50,045 nt of DNA from Candidatus Roizmanbacteria bacterium (lineage in GTDB: Bacteria; Patescibacteriota; Microgenomatia; UBA1406; GWC2-37-13), in contig JAAXWC010000011.1 in assembly GCA_013335175.1 (NCBI GenBank), positions 1-50,045 of the forward strand, written 5' to 3'. The translations under genes were made by a program, and so were the position numbers. The notes beneath the pieces were generated by a model, which was given only the letters and a program-made list of their open reading frames with translations, was not told the origin of the DNA and did no database searches. Below are positions 34,300 to 43,377 of this stretch, piece by piece. Each line of letters starts with the position of its first letter. The first letter of the stretch is position 1.

Positions 34300-37200
34300 A
34301 TGCTGTACTCGGCTTCATTTACGAATCTTTTTAGCTTGTCAAAAACCCTTCGTTTTGAATTAAAACCTGTCCCGGAGACTATAGAACTTCTCAAAAAGAA
34401 GAATATATTTGGCAAGACTCCTGTAGAAATAGATCAAGAAAAGGCTGAGCTGTATAACAAGGAATTAAAACCGATGTTTGATCAACTGCACGAGATGTTT
34501 ATAACTGAGTCGCTCAAAATAATTCAGTTCGACAGAGCTCAGCTAGAGCAGCTTGAACAACAATATCAAACATTAAAGGCTCTGAATAAGGACAAAAATA
34601 CAAATAGTGTCGCCATAGATCAACTCGTTAATCCCAAAACAGGTCTCATTGCACAACTCGAAACTAAACTTCGAGAAGTTGTGACTAATTCTTTTCTTCA
34701 AACGGGTGAAATATGGAAACAACAATATTCGGACATAAAGCTCAAAGATAATGGATATAAGATACTGACAGAAAAAAATGTATTAGAGCTTCTCAAAAAG
34801 ATTTTTCCTGAAAAAATAGAGTATATAAAAAAGTTTGATGGGTATTTTATGTATTTTAATGGCTATGGCCAAAACAGAGAAAACTACTATACTTCTGAAC
34901 TTAAATCAACTGCGATAGCGTCACGAATAATTAACGAAAATCTAAGAACGTTTATTGAAAACAGGCAGAATTATCAAATAATCAAAAATGTACCAGGTCT
35001 GGATAAATATGCAGAGCTCTTTGAATTGAAAAACTTCCAAAATTGCTTAACGCAGACTGATATAGATAAAGTAAATGAAGACGTTATCGGCGAGATTAAC
35101 AAACAGGTCAACCTTTATTGTCAGCACGAAAACAGTCGGACAGATAGGAAGGAAAATAAACTCCGCTATCCGATGCTTAAAAAACTATACAAACAAATTG
35201 GCTGTACGGTTACGTGTGATGATGTAGATATGTCACACGTATTTCCTTTCCTGGAAAAAGTCGGTATGGGTTTTAATATACGGAAAGATAGTACAGGTAA
35301 GTATCAAATTTGGGATGCACTTGAAAGCCTCGCCACACAGCTTCAGCCAAAGATAGATAAGATATTTGCTAACTACAGTAGCTTTTTTACTGATCCTTCG
35401 CACTATCAACTTGATCAAATATGGTTTCGCAAGGAAGCTCTTAATACACTTTCAGCACGTTGGTTTGGTGGAGAGAACTGGGCATCGATTGAGCGGGCGC
35501 TACTCTACTCTGGAGTAGGTAAAAAAGAAAAAGAAGAGTACCGTATTCCACCTTTTGTGAGTCTAGCTGAAATAAAGGCGGCTTTTGATGCACTGGAACA
35601 AGGAGTTAACCTCAATTTGAATAAAAAAAGAGCAAAAGAAAACAAGGAAAGTGAAGAAAATAGTGTGCAACTATTCACATATGAGCCTAGTAATCTTTTT
35701 AAAGTTAGTTACCAGCCTCATTTTAAGGACAGGCTCTTTGACACATTTATATCAATTTGGAAATACGAACTAGAAGAAACAAAAAAAGTACTTAACGATA
35801 AATTGTCACTGTTCAATAAAAGTAAGTCTGTGGATTTTGATAAAAACATAAAAGATAAACAGGAGAATTCCATCCATCTTACTCTTGTTAAAGATCTGAT
35901 CGAAGATGGTTATCTGCGCCTTTATCAGCTCACCCAATATCACAATCTTATAAAAAAAGGTGAGTTAGTTGCACTACCTACCGACTCCGTTTTTTACAAT
36001 TGCTTGGAAGAGTATTGGCTTGAAAACCCAACGATCACATATCATAAAGCCTTTCAATCGACACTTACCAAGAAACCCTATTGTGAGGATAAAATAAAGC
36101 TAAACTTCGAATGTGGTACTTTATTAGAAGGCTGGTCCGCTTCATATGAGAGCTCTGGAGCATTAATATTTTCCCAAAACGATAGATATTATCTTGGGTT
36201 GATCAATGGCACAAAGCTTAATAAAGAAGAGGTTGATTCGTTATATCAAGATTTTTCTGAAGAGAACAAAGGCGCTAGGTTAGTTTATCTAACTCAAAAG
36301 GTGGACAACAAAAACCCGCCGAGATGGTTTATCCGTTCTAAAAAGACAGCGTTTTCGCCCATGGTGAGACAGGGTTTATTAGACCCAACACCCATATTAG
36401 ACATCTATGATAATCGATTATTTTCAAAGACAGAAAATAAAGATAACTACCGTCAATACTTGCCAAAACTAATTGCCTATTTCAAAGAGGGATTCTTAAA
36501 ACATCAGGACTTCAAGTTGTTTCAATCTGAATTCAAATGGAAGAATGATAATGAATATGATTCTATAGCAGAATTTTACGAAGATACTGCTGATATGTGC
36601 TATAAGATAGAATGGGAAAAGATAAATTTCACTTCATTGATTAATCTAGTCATAAAAGAAAAAATGTATTTATTCCAAATTTATAACAAAGATTTTGAAT
36701 TAAACCAAAGCGTAGGTATGAAAAAATATGGTGAGAATTTTCATATGAAAAGCTCTCAAGGTCTACCGAATCTTCACACGATGCTTCTTAGAATGTTGTT
36801 AAAACCAGAAAATATTCATAGCTTAAAGTTGCTTGGTGGAGGTGAATTATTTTTTCGAGCAAAAAGCAAAGTGAAGGAAGTTAAGTTAGATAAATCGGGC
36901 AGAGAAGTGTTGTCGGCACCAAGATATTATGAAGATAAGTATTTTTTACACTTCCCAATTGAAATTAAAGGTCGAAAATTAAAATACGGTCTTAATCAAT
37001 ATCTAAATAATTTCATTATAGATAGCCAACATTCACCATTAGTTATCGGTATTGATCGTGGAGAAAAAAATCTACTTTACTACTCTATTATTGATATTGA
37101 TGGCAATATTCTGAAACAGGGAAGCTTGAACACGATAAAAGGTACCGATTATAATGATAAGCTGCAGACCAAACAGGAAGCCCGAAAGCAGAGACGACTT

Positions 37201-38235
37201 GATTGGGAAGAGATTGGGAATATTAAAAATTTTAAAGAAGGATATTTGTCTCAGGCAGTTCACGAGATATATCAATTGATGATCGAGTATCAGGCAGTTG
37301 TAGTCCTCGAAGACTTGAACGCTGAGTTTAAAGCAAAGAGAGCTGCACAAGTTGAAAAATCGGTTTATAAAAAATTTGAGCTAGCCCTCGCTAAAAAGCT
37401 TAATCATTTAATCTTAAAAGACAAAAAACCGGAAGAGTTGGGCGGTGTGCTCAATGCCTATCAACTTACGCCAGCAATCTCCGCAGGAGACGTGGGCAAA
37501 TTTGAACGGGCAAACCAATGGGGGGTAATGTATTACGTCAGGGCAAATTATACTTCTACAACGGATCCTATGTCTGGCTGGCGTAAACACTTGTACATCT
37601 CTAACTCCGAGACAGAAACAAAAATCAGAGAATTTTTTAATCCATTAACTGGTGTGCAAATTAACTATGAAAAAGGTAGTGACGCCTACTCGTTCTCTTA
37701 TGAATATAAAGGGAGGCGATGGAAGCTTTATGCTCATTCTCGACTACATCGATACTGTTGGAATAATCGTGAACGGAAATTGGAATATTACAGCATTCAT
37801 TCTCTGTTGGGCCAGTTATTTGCCCGCTTTGATAAGAACAAGAATATCAACACGCAATTATTGGCCGACGCAAATTTCTCCGGACAGTCGTGGAAAGATC
37901 TCGTTTTTTACTGGAACTTACTGAATCAGATTCGCAACACCGATCCTGAAAAAGTTGGGGATGCGGCTGATTTTCTCCAATCACCTGCGATTCCTTTTTA
38001 TGATAGCAGAGATTACGCCGGGAAAGATAATCCCAAACTTCCTACAGGAGCCGACGCCAATGGTGCATACAATATAGCAAGGAAAGGCGTAATGATATTG
38101 CAAAGAATCAGAAATTGTAAAGATGTGGCAAAATTTGGTGCAAAACAGGGAAATGTGGACAATGAAAATGGATACTATATACCAGATGAAGCATGGGACA
38201 ACTACGCAACGAAACAGGCTAAAAAATGGCAATAA
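34300..38235 (+). CDS. cas12a: CRISPR-associated endonuclease Cas12a (Cpf1)
   Basis: The 1311-residue protein begins with the Cas12a lead FTNLFSLSKTLRFELKPVPET. The split RuvC site is intact: Asp919 in VIGIDRGEKN, Glu1004 in VVVLEDLNAEF, and Asp1252 in PTGADANGAYN. The Nuc-domain Arg is Arg1212 (NQIRNTD). The bridge-helix region has NIKNFKEGYLSQAVHEI. By family knowledge it processes its own crRNA and makes a staggered cut in DNA next to a T-rich PAM. The WED-III processing loop (residues 849-887, GELFFRAKSKVKEVK...YYEDKYFLHFPI) is about 20 residues shorter than in Fn or Lb Cas12a and has no His before His884. TACTAT (34285-34290) lies 9 nt before the ATG. It is the first gene of the cas operon. 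Confidence 0.97.
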   Translation: MLYSASFTNLFSLSKTLRFELKPVPETIELLKKKNIFGKTPVEIDQEKAELYNKELKPMFDQLHEMFITESLKIIQFDRAQLEQLEQQYQTLKALNKDKNTNSVAIDQLVNPKTGLIAQLETKLREVVTNSFLQTGEIWKQQYSDIKLKDNGYKILTEKNVLELLKKIFPEKIEYIKKFDGYFMYFNGYGQNRENYYTSELKSTAIASRIINENLRTFIENRQNYQIIKNVPGLDKYAELFELKNFQNCLTQTDIDKVNEDVIGEINKQVNLYCQHENSRTDRKENKLRYPMLKKLYKQIGCTVTCDDVDMSHVFPFLEKVGMGFNIRKDSTGKYQIWDALESLATQLQPKIDKIFANYSSFFTDPSHYQLDQIWFRKEALNTLSARWFGGENWASIERALLYSGVGKKEKEEYRIPPFVSLAEIKAAFDALEQGVNLNLNKKRAKENKESEENSVQLFTYEPSNLFKVSYQPHFKDRLFDTFISIWKYELEETKKVLNDKLSLFNKSKSVDFDKNIKDKQENSIHLTLVKDLIEDGYLRLYQLTQYHNLIKKGELVALPTDSVFYNCLEEYWLENPTITYHKAFQSTLTKKPYCEDKIKLNFECGTLLEGWSASYESSGALIFSQNDRYYLGLINGTKLNKEEVDSLYQDFSEENKGARLVYLTQKVDNKNPPRWFIRSKKTAFSPMVRQGLLDPTPILDIYDNRLFSKTENKDNYRQYLPKLIAYFKEGFLKHQDFKLFQSEFKWKNDNEYDSIAEFYEDTADMCYKIEWEKINFTSLINLVIKEKMYLFQIYNKDFELNQSVGMKKYGENFHMKSSQGLPNLHTMLLRMLLKPENIHSLKLLGGGELFFRAKSKVKEVKLDKSGREVLSAPRYYEDKYFLHFPIEIKGRKLKYGLNQYLNNFIIDSQHSPLVIGIDRGEKNLLYYSIIDIDGNILKQGSLNTIKGTDYNDKLQTKQEARKQRRLDWEEIGNIKNFKEGYLSQAVHEIYQLMIEYQAVVVLEDLNAEFKAKRAAQVEKSVYKKFELALAKKLNHLILKDKKPEELGGVLNAYQLTPAISAGDVGKFERANQWGVMYYVRANYTSTTDPMSGWRKHLYISNSETETKIREFFNPLTGVQINYEKGSDAYSFSYEYKGRRWKLYAHSRLHRYCWNNRERKLEYYSIHSLLGQLFARFDKNKNINTQLLADANFSGQSWKDLVFYWNLLNQIRNTDPEKVGDAADFLQSPAIPFYDSRDYAGKDNPKLPTGADANGAYNIARKGVMILQRIRNCKDVAKFGAKQGNVDNENGYYIPDEAWDNYATKQAKKWQ

Positions 38236-38262
38236 CGACACCTATATGATATACTATAGGTT

Positions 38263-38802
38263 ATGGAATCTGCGATACCTATTTCGACGATAAATGATTT
38301 CCTCTATTGCCCAAAATCACTTTATCTGCACGGCATATATTCTGCTTTTGATACTTCTGTTTATCACGATACGCCACAGATAAAAGGTAGCATCATTCAT
38401 GAAAATATAGAAGAGGGTCGATATTCAACTTCAAAGTATATGCTACAAGCCCTTTCTATCTATAGCGTTCGGCTCGGATTAAAGGGGAAAATAGATGTAT
38501 ATGATTCAAAGAAGCATGAATTAATCGAGCGAAAATACCGGGTAAAACAGTTGTATAAGGGGTTTATATTTCAGTTATATGCTCAGATGTATTGTATGCA
38601 GGAGATGGGCTATGTGGTGGACAACCTCTATATTCAGTCGCTTTCCGATAATAAACGGTATCAAATAGATCTTCCTTCTGAAGAACAAAGAGAAGAGTTT
38701 GAAAAAACAATACAGCAAATGAAGTCATTTGGTTCAGAAGACCTTATTATGCACACTTGCAATCATTGTAATAATAACATTTATGATTTACTTAATTGGT
38801 AA
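38263..38802 (+). CDS. cas4: CRISPR-associated exonuclease Cas4
   Basis: The 179-residue protein has the N-terminal Cys16 in FLYCPKSLY, a His in GSIIHEN, Asp in GKIDVYD, E-x-K in LIERKYR and Q-x3-Y in QLYAQMY, which together make the RecB-type nuclease site. The C-terminal pair Cys166-x-x-Cys169 is present, but a fourth cluster Cys is not visible after it (NNNIYDLLNW). Cas4 trims prespacers and helps select the PAM during adaptation. TATACT (38250-38255) lies 7 nt before the ATG, so cas4-cas1-cas2 may also be transcribed from their own leaderless promoter. Confidence 0.94.
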   Translation: MESAIPISTINDFLYCPKSLYLHGIYSAFDTSVYHDTPQIKGSIIHENIEEGRYSTSKYMLQALSIYSVRLGLKGKIDVYDSKKHELIERKYRVKQLYKGFIFQLYAQMYCMQEMGYVVDNLYIQSLSDNKRYQIDLPSEEQREEFEKTIQQMKSFGSEDLIMHTCNHCNNNIYDLLNW

Positions 38803-38805
38803 CTT

Positions 38806-39759
38806 ATGCTTACGCTACCCGACTTTAAAGAAAAAAAGATCTTGCTGGTTAATGTTGAATATGGTCACCACAGTTTACTTCAATTAGTTACTGATAATAT
38901 TCGATTCCTTCGAGATGGCGAAGTGGTAAACCAAATATCTACCCATATTGTATTTGCTATTTTCATTGTCGGAGACATAACTATCACCTCCTCGTTGCTT
39001 AAAAAGCTAACTGCTCAAGGTATATCAGTATTTTTCCTCAATCACAATCTTGCAACGAAAGCGACAGTCATGGCAGAAGCAGAGGGAAACTTTCTCCTCC
39101 GTCAGAAGCAATACGCCGAAGAGAATACGTTAACTGTCGCTCAAATGATTGTGAAGAATAAAATTACTAATCAAGTCGCAACGCTAAAGAAAGCAAAAAT
39201 GGAATACCCGGAAAAAGTATTTTCTTATAATATTGCATTATCGGAAACGGCAGACACGCACCAAGAGTTATTAGGTGCTGAGGGTAATGCGTCAAAATCA
39301 TATTTTCAAACCCTGTTTGCGGACATTGAGTGGGTACGACGAGCACCCCAAACTAAAGAAGATGTTAACAATCTTTTATTAGATATTGGTTATACATACC
39401 TATTTAATTACTGTGATGCACTTCTTCGACTTTTCGGCTTTGATGTTTATAAAGGCGTTTATCACCAGTTGTTCTTTCAAAGAAAATCCTTGGTATGTGA
39501 TATCATGGAGCCAATTCGACCAATCATTGATTATCAGCTTTTGAAAAGTCATCGCCTTAAGCAAATACACAAAAAAGACTTTGTTTTTATAAAAGGCCGT
39601 TATGAGTTTAAGGAGGGATTTACAACACATAAAACATACAGCTCATTGTTTCTTGACGCAATTAATGAAAATAAGGAGCAAATTTATAATTACATTCTGG
39701 GGTATTATCGCTATACGATGAATCATGTGAAATACCCCTTTCCACAGTTTACGATCTAA
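38806..39759 (+). CDS. cas1: CRISPR-associated integrase Cas1
   Basis: The 317-residue protein has an N-terminal beta domain and a helical C-terminal domain. The catalytic residues are in place: Glu159 in GAEGNASKSYF, His220 in GVYHQLFFQRKSLV, and Asp232 with Glu235 in CDIMEPIRP. With Cas2 it forms the complex that inserts new spacers at the leader end of the array. It starts 3 bp after cas4 and ends 2 bp before cas2. Confidence 0.96.
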   Translation: MLTLPDFKEKKILLVNVEYGHHSLLQLVTDNIRFLRDGEVVNQISTHIVFAIFIVGDITITSSLLKKLTAQGISVFFLNHNLATKATVMAEAEGNFLLRQKQYAEENTLTVAQMIVKNKITNQVATLKKAKMEYPEKVFSYNIALSETADTHQELLGAEGNASKSYFQTLFADIEWVRRAPQTKEDVNNLLLDIGYTYLFNYCDALLRLFGFDVYKGVYHQLFFQRKSLVCDIMEPIRPIIDYQLLKSHRLKQIHKKDFVFIKGRYEFKEGFTTHKTYSSLFLDAINENKEQIYNYILGYYRYTMNHVKYPFPQFTI

Positions 39760-39761
39760 TT

Positions 39762-40043
39762 ATGTTAATAGTCTCATATGATTTTGCAAACGACAAGATG
39801 AGAACACGGTTTTCTAAGTTCCTCAAGCAGTATGGATGGCGGATGCAGTACTCAGTGTTTGTAATAGCTAATAGTCCCCGGGTATTACGAAATATCCTTG
39901 CCGAAATAGATACACGCTATAAAAAACAGTTTAAGGATACTGATAGTATCGTACTTTTTCCAACATGCCAAGGCTGCAAAGCTAAGATTGTGAGATACGG
40001 CTCAGCAAGACATGAGATAGAAGATGTGGTATGCTTTAGTTAA
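39762..40043 (+). CDS. cas2: CRISPR-associated protein Cas2
   Basis: The 93-residue ferredoxin-like protein starts MLIVSYDFANDKMRTRFSKF, with the conserved Asp7, and continues with YGWRMQYSVFVI. It is the structural core of the Cas1-Cas2 spacer integrase. A Cys pair (CQGCKAKI) occurs near the C terminus. It is the last cas gene, 168 bp before the array. Confidence 0.95.
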   Translation: MLIVSYDFANDKMRTRFSKFLKQYGWRMQYSVFVIANSPRVLRNILAEIDTRYKKQFKDTDSIVLFPTCQGCKAKIVRYGSARHEIEDVVCFS

Positions 40044-40211
40044 GCACATTTATAATTCGCAAACAAAAAGTACAAGTGAAATTATTACTATTTGAAAGCA
40101 TAAAAAACCTTAGTCTTTATGAGCCTGTTTTTTGACAAATTGAACTCAAAGTCCTTGTTGCAGACTATCTGCCAAGTTGCATCTTTAGATTGTTCTGACA
40201 ACAAACAGGCT
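40044..40211 (+). promoter_or_regulatory. CRISPR leader with a long inverted repeat
   Basis: This AT-rich region lies between cas2 and the first repeat. GAGCCTGTTTTTTG (40121-40134) and CAACAAACAGGCTC (40199-40212) are inverted copies that match at 13 of 14 positions. The right arm ends on the first base of repeat 1. TTGACA occurs at 40132-40137 but has no good -10 at the usual distance. By family knowledge the leader directs spacer insertion and array transcription. Confidence 0.65.
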
Positions 40212-41869
40212 CTCAAATACTGATAGTACATTTCTACTTTTGTAGATGCGCAGTACAAAGCACAGGATCAACACTCAAATACTGATAGTACATTTCTACT
40301 TTTGTAGATCCTTTACCATTATGAAGTATTTATTTTTCTCAAATACTGATAGTACATTTCTACTTTTGTAGATACCTAAATATATGCAACCAGAAATTGC
40401 TCAAATACTGATAGTACATTTCTACTTTTGTAGATAACCTGGAAAGCATATTTCAATTCAACTCAAATACTGATAGTACATTTCTACTTTTGTAGATTTA
40501 TTTCCATATTTTTGTTTGTTTTCTCAAATACTGATAGTACATTTCTACTTTTGTAGATTCAGCTTGAACTTTTAATGCTTTAGCACTCAAATACTGATAG
40601 TACATTTCTACTTTTGTAGATCAATACTCCAAACTGCAACTATACACTCAAATACTGATAGTACATTTCTACTTTTGTAGATCAATACTCCAAACTGCAA
40701 CTATACACTCAAATACTGATAGTACATTTCTACTTTTGTAGATCCAATGTAACTCGTGCATATCCAGTCCTCAAATACTGATAGTACATTTCTACTTTTG
40801 TAGATACCGCTGCAAGTTTGCGCTTCGCCTCCTCAAATACTGATAGTACATTTCTACTTTTGTAGATTTACTACGTCTTTTCTAAAATCATCTTTCTCAA
40901 ATACTGATAGTACATTTCTACTTTTGTAGATGACTATCAGCCGCTGGCTACATAGTCTCAAATACTGATAGTACATTTCTACTTTTGTAGATGTCCATGC
41001 ACTTGAGCTATTCTTATCTCAAATACTGATAGTACATTTCTACTTTTGTAGATTCCATAAGCTTCTTTAATACGTCCTGCTCAAATACTGATAGTACATT
41101 TCTACTTTTGTAGATAAAATGGTAACTCTCCAACCCAGCCGCTCAAATACTGATAGTACATTTCTACTTTTGTAGATCAACGAACGCATATTCCAATATT
41201 AGTACTCAAATACTGATAGTACATTTCTACTTTTGTAGATATTATGATGATACCGGTATGAATTGTCTCAAATACTGATAGTACATTTCTACTTTTGTAG
41301 ATAAAAGTCAAGTACGTAAATCACTTGTCTCAAATACTGATAGTACATTTCTACTTTTGTAGATCAACCAGAGTGGCGTTTATGACCTCTTCTGCTCAAA
41401 TACTGATAGTACATTTCTACTTTTGTAGATAGTGAGGAGAGTGCTCTAAATACGTTACTCAAATACTGATAGTACATTTCTACTTTTGTAGATGATATGC
41501 TCTAGGAAGAAAAACATACTCAAATACTGATAGTACATTTCTACTTTTGTAGATCATCTCTTCTTTTGTAGGTTTTTTCCAGCTCAAATACTGATAGTAC
41601 ATTTCTACTTTTGTAGATCTTGATCTTGCTCGTATTTTGAATGACGCTCAAATACTGATAGTACATTTCTACTTTTGTAGATCTAGAGCAGAAGAAGAAG
41701 GATATAAACTCAAATACTGATAGTACATTTCTACTTTTGTAGATAATAACTTAATAATTCCCCAACCCAACTCAAATACTGATAGTACATTTCTACTTTT
41801 GTAGATAATCCCGGAGCGTATTTCCTCGAAGTTCTCAAATACTGATAGTACATTTCTACTTTTGTATAT
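40212..41869 (+). CRISPR. Type V-A CRISPR array, 27 repeats and 26 spacers
   Basis: The 36-nt repeat begins CTCAAATACTGATAGTACAT and ends TTCTACTTTTGTAGAT. The 3' end forms the Cas12a crRNA hairpin TCTAC-TTTT-GTAGA, which sets the reading direction as plus. Repeats start at 40212, 40274, 40338, 40400, 40462, 40523, 40586, 40647, 40708, 40770 and so on to 41834. Spacers are about 24-30 nt. All repeats look identical except the last (41834-41869), whose end is GTATAT instead of GTAGAT; this marks the old, leader-distal end. Spacers 7 (40622-40646) and 8 (40683-40707) are identical. Confidence 0.98.
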
Positions 41870-42579: not shown

Positions 42580-42658
42580 TATCTTCTTGCGGAGTTTTTT
42601 ATGTAGCACAGAGCAAATTATATAGTATATGGGTCTTCGGAGTATAATGAAGATAGAT

Positions 42659-42910
42659 ATGAAGCAGATAAATATGGTATCGGCGAGCGAGATAGGAGAC
42701 TTCGTATTTTGTAAACGAGGCTGGTGGTTGAGATTTAATGAAAAACTTCCGAAAGATACGGAAGAAATGGCGGCAGGTAGAGCTGAACATGAATCCCTTG
42801 CGCGACGTGTAGATTTCACTCAACGTGTCAGGCTTTTTACGATTGTTTTGCTATCGGCAGGTATATTGCTTGGTCTTCTGTTACTTATCATCCAGTGGTT
42901 TTTACAATGA
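42659..42910 (+). CDS. N-terminal half of a split Cas4-like membrane nuclease
   Basis: The 83-residue protein reads MVSASEIGDFVFCKRGWWLRF near its start. This is the Cas4/RecB-like lead with its iron-sulfur-type Cys, followed by GRAEHESLARRV with the conserved G-x-x-x-H. It ends in a membrane helix (LFTIVLLSAGILLGLLLLII). In single-chain CPR relatives the protein continues through a second helix into the nuclease core; here that part is the next gene, overlapping by ATGA. TATAAT is at 42643-42648. The exact start among ATGs at 42647, 42659 and 42674 is uncertain. Confidence 0.75.
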   Translation: MKQINMVSASEIGDFVFCKRGWWLRFNEKLPKDTEEMAAGRAEHESLARRVDFTQRVRLFTIVLLSAGILLGLLLLIIQWFLQ

Positions 42911-43377
42911 TCCTCATAGTTATACTTCTTGTACTTATTGGCGGATTGCTGCTTTGGCTCTACGTTCAGGTACAGGGGCGGAAATTAGGGAGTCTTTTTA
43001 AGCCATCCATCTCTGTCGACCGGGAAGAAAACCCGGGTATTACGCTCGTGGGAAAATCAGTGCCACTTGTCGGAAGACCCGACTATCTCATTCGGGAAAA
43101 AGGGGCTATTATACCCGTTGAAGTAAAGACGGGCAAAACTCCCCGGACACCTCATACAAACCATACGATGCAACTTATGGCCTATTGTCTTCTCATTGAA
43201 GAGGTTTATGGACAACTGCCACCAGGTGGGTATCTTCGGTATCCGGAAAAGGAGTTCAAAATAGCATATACTGAAGAAGCACGAAAATCTGTGCTTGATC
43301 TTATTTCTGAGATTACAGAGTGTAAAAGAAAAAACCAAGAATTTACCTGCAAACACCCATATCACAATACTACGTAA
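42907..43377 (+). CDS. C-terminal half of a split Cas4-like membrane nuclease
   Basis: The 156-residue protein starts with a membrane helix (MILIVILLVLIGGLLLWLYV). It then carries the PD-(D/E)xK core: VGRPDYLIREKGAIIPVEVKTGK (Asp, then E-x-K) and MQLMAYCLLIEEVYGQLPPGGYLRYP (Q-x3-Y). A Cys in CKHPY near the end pairs with the N-terminal Cys of the preceding gene as in Cas4. By fold it is a RecB/Cas4-type DNA nuclease facing the cytoplasm. It needs the 42659-42910 product for the full site. It lies about 1 kb past the array and on the same strand as the cas genes. Confidence 0.8.
   Translation: MILIVILLVLIGGLLLWLYVQVQGRKLGSLFKPSISVDREENPGITLVGKSVPLVGRPDYLIREKGAIIPVEVKTGKTPRTPHTNHTMQLMAYCLLIEEVYGQLPPGGYLRYPEKEFKIAYTEEARKSVLDLISEITECKRKNQEFTCKHPYHNTT

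What the first reader, a model, noticed from the sequence alone, without database searches (positions are those of the whole stretch)
34300..41869. Complete compact type V-A CRISPR-Cas12a locus in a CPR-like genome
The sequence shows cas12a, cas4, cas1 and cas2 in one direction with gaps of 2-27 bp, then a leader and 27 repeats with the Cas12a-type 3' hairpin. All RuvC residues (Asp919, Glu1004, Asp1252), Arg1212 and the Cas1 catalytic set are present, so the system appears able to interfere and adapt. Cas12a itself is a known family; this ortholog and its 26 spacers may be new.
Basis: partly seen in the sequence, partly recalled or inferred. Interest (0 to 1): 0.85.

Follow-up and report, generated by a model that had tools for sequence, protein, structure and literature searches.

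The report
Cas12a CRISPR locus, processing site missing
This is a real, complete CRISPR-Cas12a immune system in a small-genome bacterium; its Cas12a belongs to a branch that lacks the known site with which Cas12a cuts its own guide RNAs, and most loci of that branch carry a folded element, absent from the RNA-family library, just before the CRISPR array.

Summary
cas12a-cas4-cas1-cas2 lie on one strand with gaps of 27, 3 and 2 bp, then 27 repeats and 26 spacers (25 distinct). RuvC D919/E1004/D1252, R1212 and the Cas1/Cas2/Cas4 catalytic residues are present. By profile, fold and tree it is type V-A. The nearest ortholog found is 54% identical. No protospacer or self-target was found, so the PAM is unknown.

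(1) The window lies in a CPR-dominated Cas12a clade lacking the wedge-domain loop with the known pre-crRNA-processing residues (FnCas12a H843/K852; K869 is Ser here). The PAM-contact lysines are Tyr616 and Arg675. (2) The 90 nt before repeat 1 form a hairpin with a conserved asymmetric internal loop and covarying stems. It occurs in 22 of 26 visible leaders of loop-lacking loci, in 0 of 33 of loop-bearing loci, and in no Rfam family. (3) Effector and adaptation module have different histories.

How crRNA is matured here, and what the hairpin does, is not shown. Locus layout and interference are ordinary; the loop loss with its leader hairpin is not. New variant of a known kind.

The parts
34300..38235 (+). 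cas12a, 1311 aa; RuvC D919, E1004, D1252 and R1212 present
   Evidence: TIGR04330 584 bits; alignment to FnCas12a
36145..36147 (+). Tyr616, at the place of the PAM-contact lysine FnCas12a K613
   Evidence: Alignment of 75 orthologs: K 54, Y 13
36322..36324 (+). Arg675, at the place of FnCas12a K671
   Evidence: Alignment of 75 orthologs: K 51, R 18
36856..36927 (+). Short wedge-domain loop, residues 853-876, without counterparts of FnCas12a H843 and K852; K869 is Ser872
   Evidence: modelled as a short beta hairpin
38263..38802 (+). cas4, 179 aa
   Evidence: TIGR04328 197 bits; C16, D78, E89, K91
38806..39759 (+). cas1, 317 aa
   Evidence: TIGR00287 126 bits, TIGR04329 286 bits; E159, H220, D232
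39762..40043 (+). cas2, 93 aa
   Evidence: TIGR01573 52 bits; D7
40105..40120 (+). Leader element AAAACCTTAGTCTTTAT-like, shared with leaders of both Cas12a clades
40121..40212 (+). Leader hairpin: outer stem 40121 on / up to 40212, AAAG 40148-40151, UC 40152-40153, inner hairpin, UUGCAU 40177-40182, CUUU 40183-40186
   Evidence: Fold z -3.3; arm-swap test 0 of 10,000; covariance model from other leaders hits 40140-40199, E 0.0021 in the window
40212..41869 (+). CRISPR array: 27 repeats CTCAAATACTGATAGTACATTTCTACTTTTGTAGAT, 26 spacers (7 = 8)
41834..41869 (+). Terminal repeat with G to T in the stem (GTATAT)
   Evidence: compare PMC6610086

Best explanation
A type V-A CRISPR-Cas12a immune system. 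Shown: intact Cas12a nuclease residues, intact Cas1, Cas2 and Cas4 residues, and a 27-repeat array with Cas12a-type repeats. From family knowledge: Cas4-Cas1-Cas2 insert new spacers at the leader end, and Cas12a with a crRNA cuts matching DNA with RuvC. Shown: the clade of this Cas12a lacks the wedge loop with the known pre-crRNA ribonuclease residues, and most of its loci with a visible leader carry one conserved hairpin ending at or near repeat 1. Inferred: pre-crRNA is not cut by the FnCas12a triad here; another site or a host nuclease matures it. Inferred: the hairpin is a structured 5' part of the array transcript, recognised through its conserved asymmetric internal loop (UC / UUGYAU), and helps make or protect crRNA. 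The PAM is probably not plain TTTV, because both lysines that contact it in FnCas12a are changed.
For: Residues and families. H843 kept in 49 of 75 orthologs, K852 as K/R in 54, K869 in 56, none in the window. The tree without the loop gives 51 loop-bearing rows against a 27-row CPR-dominated clade with only three longer loops. Hairpin: own arms -17.8 against swapped -7.7 kcal/mol, 0 of 10,000 permutations; 15 of 21 pairs with changes on both sides, 0 of 500 shuffles; a model without the window finds the window leader first; 22 of 26 leaders of loop-lacking and 0 of 33 of loop-bearing loci. G-U outnumber A-C cells 15 to 8. FnCas12a mechanism: PMC11127173.
Against: No expression or biochemical data. 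Absence of the known residues does not prove absence of activity. Cas1 lineage and loop type go together, so the hairpin could belong to adaptation. Antisense stems are nearly as stable (-17.1), so DNA or the other strand is not excluded. Four loop-lacking leaders lack the motif (L032 and L086 have a hairpin of other sequence, L144 and L151 none seen).
Confidence: 0.45

Rival explanations
1. Ordinary self-processing Cas12a: the short-loop clade cuts pre-crRNA with other residues of the wedge domain, or with RuvC as Cas12j does, and the leader hairpin is unrelated to maturation.
For: The repeat keeps the Cas12a handle UCUAC-UUUU-GUAGAU and its broken terminal copy, which suggests the handle is still recognised. 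Lysines remain in the short loop. RuvC RNA processing is known for Cas12j (cited in PMC8986864).
Against: No His is conserved in the short loop; the window also has Pro where 73 of 75 have K or R (Fn K871). No known catalytic replacement.
Confidence: 0.3
2. The hairpin is an adaptation element: a DNA palindrome or leader structure used by Cas4-Cas1-Cas2 or a host protein to mark the leader-repeat junction.
For: It ends at or near repeat 1; in the window its last pair uses the first base of repeat 1. The four loci with the most similar Cas1 share the outer stem although their Cas12a differ. Cas1 and Cas2 act at this junction.
Against: Type V-A integration in vitro needs no more than three leader nucleotides in F. 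novicida (PMC13034035), though that system lies outside this clade. Variable stems with a conserved internal loop fit a folded single strand better than duplex DNA. L028 has the motif although its Cas1 falls outside the group, at 81% support.
Confidence: 0.35
3. The locus is decaying or inactive.
For: The nearest relative L015 has a broken cas1 and no cas4. No protospacer was found. Two neighbouring spacers are identical.
Against: All four cas genes of the window are open and keep their catalytic residues; 26 of 27 repeats are identical. The loop-lacking clade is diverse, spread over many CPR groups, with RuvC intact.
Confidence: 0.07

Closest known systems
Type V-A CRISPR-Cas12a of Francisella novicida (FnCas12a)
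   Same: RuvC residues, cas4-cas1-cas2 order, 36-nt repeat with the UCUAC-N4-GUAGAU handle, fold.
   Different: About 30% identical; no H843/K852 loop, K869 is Ser, K613 is Tyr, K671 is Arg.
L015, Cas12a of Patescibacteria KR11_N2.mb.17 (JAHIGH010000199.1)
   Same: Closest ortholog, 54% over 1315 columns; short loop, Tyr and Arg at the PAM sites, same leader hairpin and a similar repeat.
   Different: cas4 not found and cas1 interrupted.
Published CPR Cas12a groups of Roizmanbacteria (PMC6509639), Cas12a-M families (PMC7757703)
   Same: CPR Cas12a systems were known. The PADLOC profile Cas12a_M58 has the short loop by its span; M13, M26, M28 and M29 do not.
   Different: Neither text mentions the processing residues or a leader hairpin in the passages found. 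Active M enzymes were tested with trimmed guides, so processing was not tested.
Leader-repeat hairpin of Cas13b systems (PMC13187072)
   Same: A conserved folded leader RNA directly before the array.
   Different: There the leader pairs with repeat 1 to block an extraneous crRNA in guide-repeat systems; VI-A, a repeat-guide system, lacks it. Here the leader folds on itself and shows no special pairing with its repeat.
scoutRNA-dependent type V-C / V-D systems (from knowledge; mentioned in PMC11127173)
   Same: Type V effectors of CPR bacteria without the Cas12a wedge ribonuclease; an RNA element near the array would be comparable.
   Different: No anti-repeat was found here; the effector is Cas12a.

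Membership tests
Type V-A CRISPR-Cas (by effector, repeat and locus) | Cas12a effector by curated profile | tested here: met
   TIGR04330 584 bits, cut-off 300; structure search gives Cas12a first
Type V-A CRISPR-Cas (by effector, repeat and locus) | RuvC D, E, D catalytic residues | tested here: met
   D919, E1004, D1252
Type V-A CRISPR-Cas (by effector, repeat and locus) | Repeat with 3' handle UCUAC-N-GUAGAU | tested here: met
   27 repeats
Type V-A CRISPR-Cas (by effector, repeat and locus) | cas4-cas1-cas2 of the V-A kind next to the effector | tested here: met
   TIGR04328 above its cut-off; TIGR04329 (V-A Cas1) best Cas1 model at 286 bits, just under its cut-off of 300
Type V-A CRISPR-Cas (by effector, repeat and locus) | No tracrRNA | tested here: inconclusive
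   No anti-repeat beyond 11 nt in the window; the leader hairpin is of unknown role
Self-processing Cas12a (FnCas12a-like; a property of studied enzymes, not a classification rule) | Wedge ribonuclease residues H843, K852, K869 | tested here: not met
   Gap, gap, Ser
Self-processing Cas12a (FnCas12a-like; a property of studied enzymes, not a classification rule) | Pre-crRNA cleavage by the purified protein | not testable with these tools
   Needs a biochemical assay
TTTV-PAM Cas12a | PAM-contact lysines (Fn K613, K671; GWxxxK) | tested here: not met
   Y616, R675, GWSASY
TTTV-PAM Cas12a | TTTV next to protospacers | tested here: inconclusive
   No protospacer found
scoutRNA/tracrRNA-dependent type V | Small RNA near the array with an anti-repeat segment | tested here: inconclusive
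   Leader pairs with its own repeat no better than with others' (-10.9 against -10.7; shuffled leader -11.3 kcal/mol); pairing of only 3-5 nt, as in scoutRNAs, could escape this test

The most novel reading that the evidence does not exclude
A whole clade of CPR Cas12a lost, or never had, self-processing and instead depends on a leader-encoded structured RNA, recognised through a conserved UC/UUGYAU internal loop, for crRNA maturation or loading: an RNA-cofactor-dependent form of type V-A.
Probability: 0.15. Interest if true: 0.85.

Novelty: new variant of a known kind. Interest (0 to 1): 0.6.

Why it matters
Self-processing of pre-crRNA is taken as a hallmark of Cas12a and underlies its use with multi-guide arrays. 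A natural clade without the known catalytic loop makes it testable whether that activity is ancestral or was gained in the branch in common use, and how crRNAs are made without it. The leader hairpin is a defined, covarying element with no Rfam entry whose presence follows that clade. Loci with similar adaptation modules but very different Cas12a show that V-A effectors are exchanged as modules. With its changed PAM contacts the ortholog may also read a different PAM.

Tried and rejected
Protospacers: all spacers against phage records (one 25-nt hit, E 0.8), plasmids (none), the own genome (nothing beyond chance), 72 family and 373 class genomes. Exact 18-20-nt seeds of six spacers against IMG/VR: none. 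The spacer-5 hit in G063 was dropped: AT-rich, and beside prfB/ftsE/ftsX-like chromosomal genes. tracrRNA-like anti-repeat: none convincing. Rfam: chance matches only. Intrinsic-terminator reading of the hairpin: none predicted. Sigma-70 promoter in the leader: no more than chance. The alignment of all 22 leaders misregisters the AAAG anchor by one column, so RNAalifold saw only nine pairs; I used 11 leaders that align cleanly and kept the window out of the model. One folding survey was spoiled by a naming clash (found) and is not used. The model hit in G394 is a simple perfect inverted repeat. Literature searches for loop-lacking Cas12a and for V-A leader structure found no report, within the open-access library only.

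Full report
OBSERVATION. The locus is as described. cas12a (34300-38235), cas4, cas1 and cas2 follow each other on + with gaps of 27, 3 and 2 bp. 27 repeats of 36 nt stand at 40212-41869 with 26 spacers of 25-30 nt; spacers 7 and 8 are identical and the last repeat has a broken stem. The RuvC residues and R1212 are at the stated positions. The proteins pass the curated cut-offs of TIGR04330, TIGR04328, TIGR00287 and TIGR01573. Cas1 E159/H220/D232, Cas2 D7 and Cas4 D78/E89/K91 are invariant among relatives and present. An AF2 model of residues 520-1311 (pLDDT 71.7, pTM 0.52) matches Cas12a structures first; global TM-scores are low (0.40-0.45), so it supports the fold, not domain placement.

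WHERE IT IS. The genome has 1.45 Mb in 46 contigs. A same-family genome, G055, carries the same 31,461-bp contig as Candidatus Roizmanbacteria GW2011_GWA2_37_7, so this is a CPR genome. 12 of 373 sampled genomes of the class match the window's Cas12a at E <= 0.001, one of them (G003) through a Cas12e.

RELATIVES. Among 84,980 species genomes the nearest Cas12a is 54% identical (L015, JAHIGH010000199.1), then 41% (L016, Falkowbacteria, interrupted in the standard code), then 34% or less over full length. It is a new ortholog within these collections.

PROCESSING LOOP. In FnCas12a pre-crRNA is cut by H843, K852 and K869 of the wedge domain (PMC11127173). I aligned 75 orthologs with the FnCas12a residues printed; the numbering checks. 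H843 is kept in 49 of 75, K852 as K or R in 54, K869 in 56. The window has only 21 residues between R853 and R875, no His, and Ser at the K869 position. Loop lengths fall into two main groups: about 20-31 residues without the His/Lys pair, and 32-77 residues, most with it. A tree built without the loop separates 51 rows, all loop-bearing, from a clade of 27 dominated by CPR genomes, in which only three Bacteroidota/Spirochaetota rows have a longer loop. L032, L036 and L038, whose genes read only with TGA as Gly, are also loop-lacking. The window goes further: where 73 of 75 have K or R (Fn K871) it has Pro874. This shows that the known site is absent, not that the activity is absent.

PAM RESIDUES. 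FnCas12a K613 and K671 are Y616 and R675 here, and the GWxxxK motif described in PMC7757703 reads GWSASY. Engineered changes at these places alter the PAM (the As RR and RVR variants, from knowledge; structures listed). No protospacer was found from which to read the PAM.

LEADER HAIRPIN. Comparing leaders showed a shared element: an outer stem leads to AAAG, then UC, an inner hairpin, UUGYAU, CUUU and the other half of the outer stem. AAGTC lies 74-82 nt before the stem of repeat 1. In the window it spans 40121-40212 and its last pair uses the first base of repeat 1. Folding z-scores in ten leaders run from -1.9 to -7.9, -3.3 in the window. Own outer arms pair at -17.8 kcal/mol on average, arms swapped between loci at -7.7, and no permutation of 10,000 reaches the native total. 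In 11 cleanly aligned leaders 15 of 21 pairs have changes on both sides, 0 of 500 shuffles. A covariance model built from those 11, without the window, was run on 90 loci (1.34 Mb): all hits with E below 0.5 lie at leaders of loop-lacking loci, including leaders not in the model (L029 1.4e-7, L036 4.6e-6, L013 1.1e-5, L019 0.012, window 0.057). In the window alone, unfiltered, the leader is the top hit at E 0.0021, the next 1.9. In 373 genomes the hits at E <= 0.01 are four V-A leaders and one simple inverted repeat. No Rfam family fits. Counting looser matches (L010, L012, L036), 22 of 26 visible leaders of loop-lacking loci have it. Of the other four, L032 and L086 have a hairpin of similar build with other loop sequences, L144 and L151 none that I could see. 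None of 33 leaders of loop-bearing loci has it. The loci share ancestry, so the Fisher value (2e-12) overstates the case.

WHAT THE HAIRPIN IS NOT. It does not pair specially with its own repeat and no terminator is predicted there. Blocking an extraneous crRNA, the role of leader-repeat hairpins in Cas13b systems (PMC13187072), is not expected in a repeat-guide system; there the last repeat is altered instead (PMC6610086), as here. RNA or DNA is undecided: G-U cells outnumber A-C cells 15 to 8, which leans towards a + strand RNA, but antisense stems are almost as stable.

MODULE EXCHANGE. Cas1 of the window groups with L011 (= L031), L019 and L017 at 100%, identity 59-67%, and these loci share the outer stem and a similar repeat. 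Their Cas12a proteins are only 29-34% identical to the window's, and the Cas12a data reject the four as one clade (p-AU 2.9e-60; the group was chosen after seeing the Cas1 tree). So Cas12a was exchanged against a related adaptation module and array.

MECHANISM. Shown: parts and residues. From family knowledge: Cas4-Cas1-Cas2 insert spacers at the leader end; Cas12a with crRNA cuts DNA by RuvC. Inferred: pre-crRNA is matured by a route other than the FnCas12a triad; the hairpin is a structured leader RNA read through its internal loop. Its link to maturation rather than to adaptation is the weakest step: Cas1 lineage and effector type are confounded. L028 points to the effector; the shared outer stems of the window group point to the adaptation module.

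VERDICT. Membership: type V-A, new ortholog. Variant: loop-lacking, changed PAM contacts, leader hairpin. I found no report of loop-lacking Cas12a or of this hairpin in the open-access library; subscription papers were not searched.

Noticed in passing
window 42629-42910 and 42895-43377 (+): A second Cas4-like nuclease right of the array, split over two overlapping frames that match complementary halves of the Cas4 profile, with hydrophobic segments at the junction. In 57 relatives only weak matches; partial copies at the ends of contigs C9 and C19 of the own genome.
   Followed up: partly
window 40105-40120; leaders of many V-A loci: A short leader element (AAACCTnrGTCTTwAT) about 92-136 nt before repeat 1 in both Cas12a clades, just after cas2; role unknown.
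   Followed up: partly
L012:1-1995, L013:3-1988: Cas12a-type C-terminus; in L012 with CPHC and CPKC zinc-ribbon motifs where other Cas12a have the Nuc region. Possibly Cas12a2-like; both cut off by the contig end.
   Followed up: no
L010:9764-12934, L012:3299-6544: A second, 1056-1081 aa type V effector between Cas12a and cas4; the L010 locus is the published two-Cas12a Roizmanbacteria locus (PMC6509639); compare Cas12l in PMC7757703. An ATPase-like gene lies between the two effectors.
   Followed up: partly
L014:6202-8715 (-): Cas12e (CasX), 837 aa, with cas4, cas1 and a repeat array in G003, a genome of the window's own family.
   Followed up: partly
L032, L036, L038: Cas12a genes open only with TGA read as Gly (code 25): type V-A systems in recoded genomes.
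   Followed up: partly
L015:4321-5786: In the nearest relative cas4 is not found and cas1 is interrupted.
   Followed up: no
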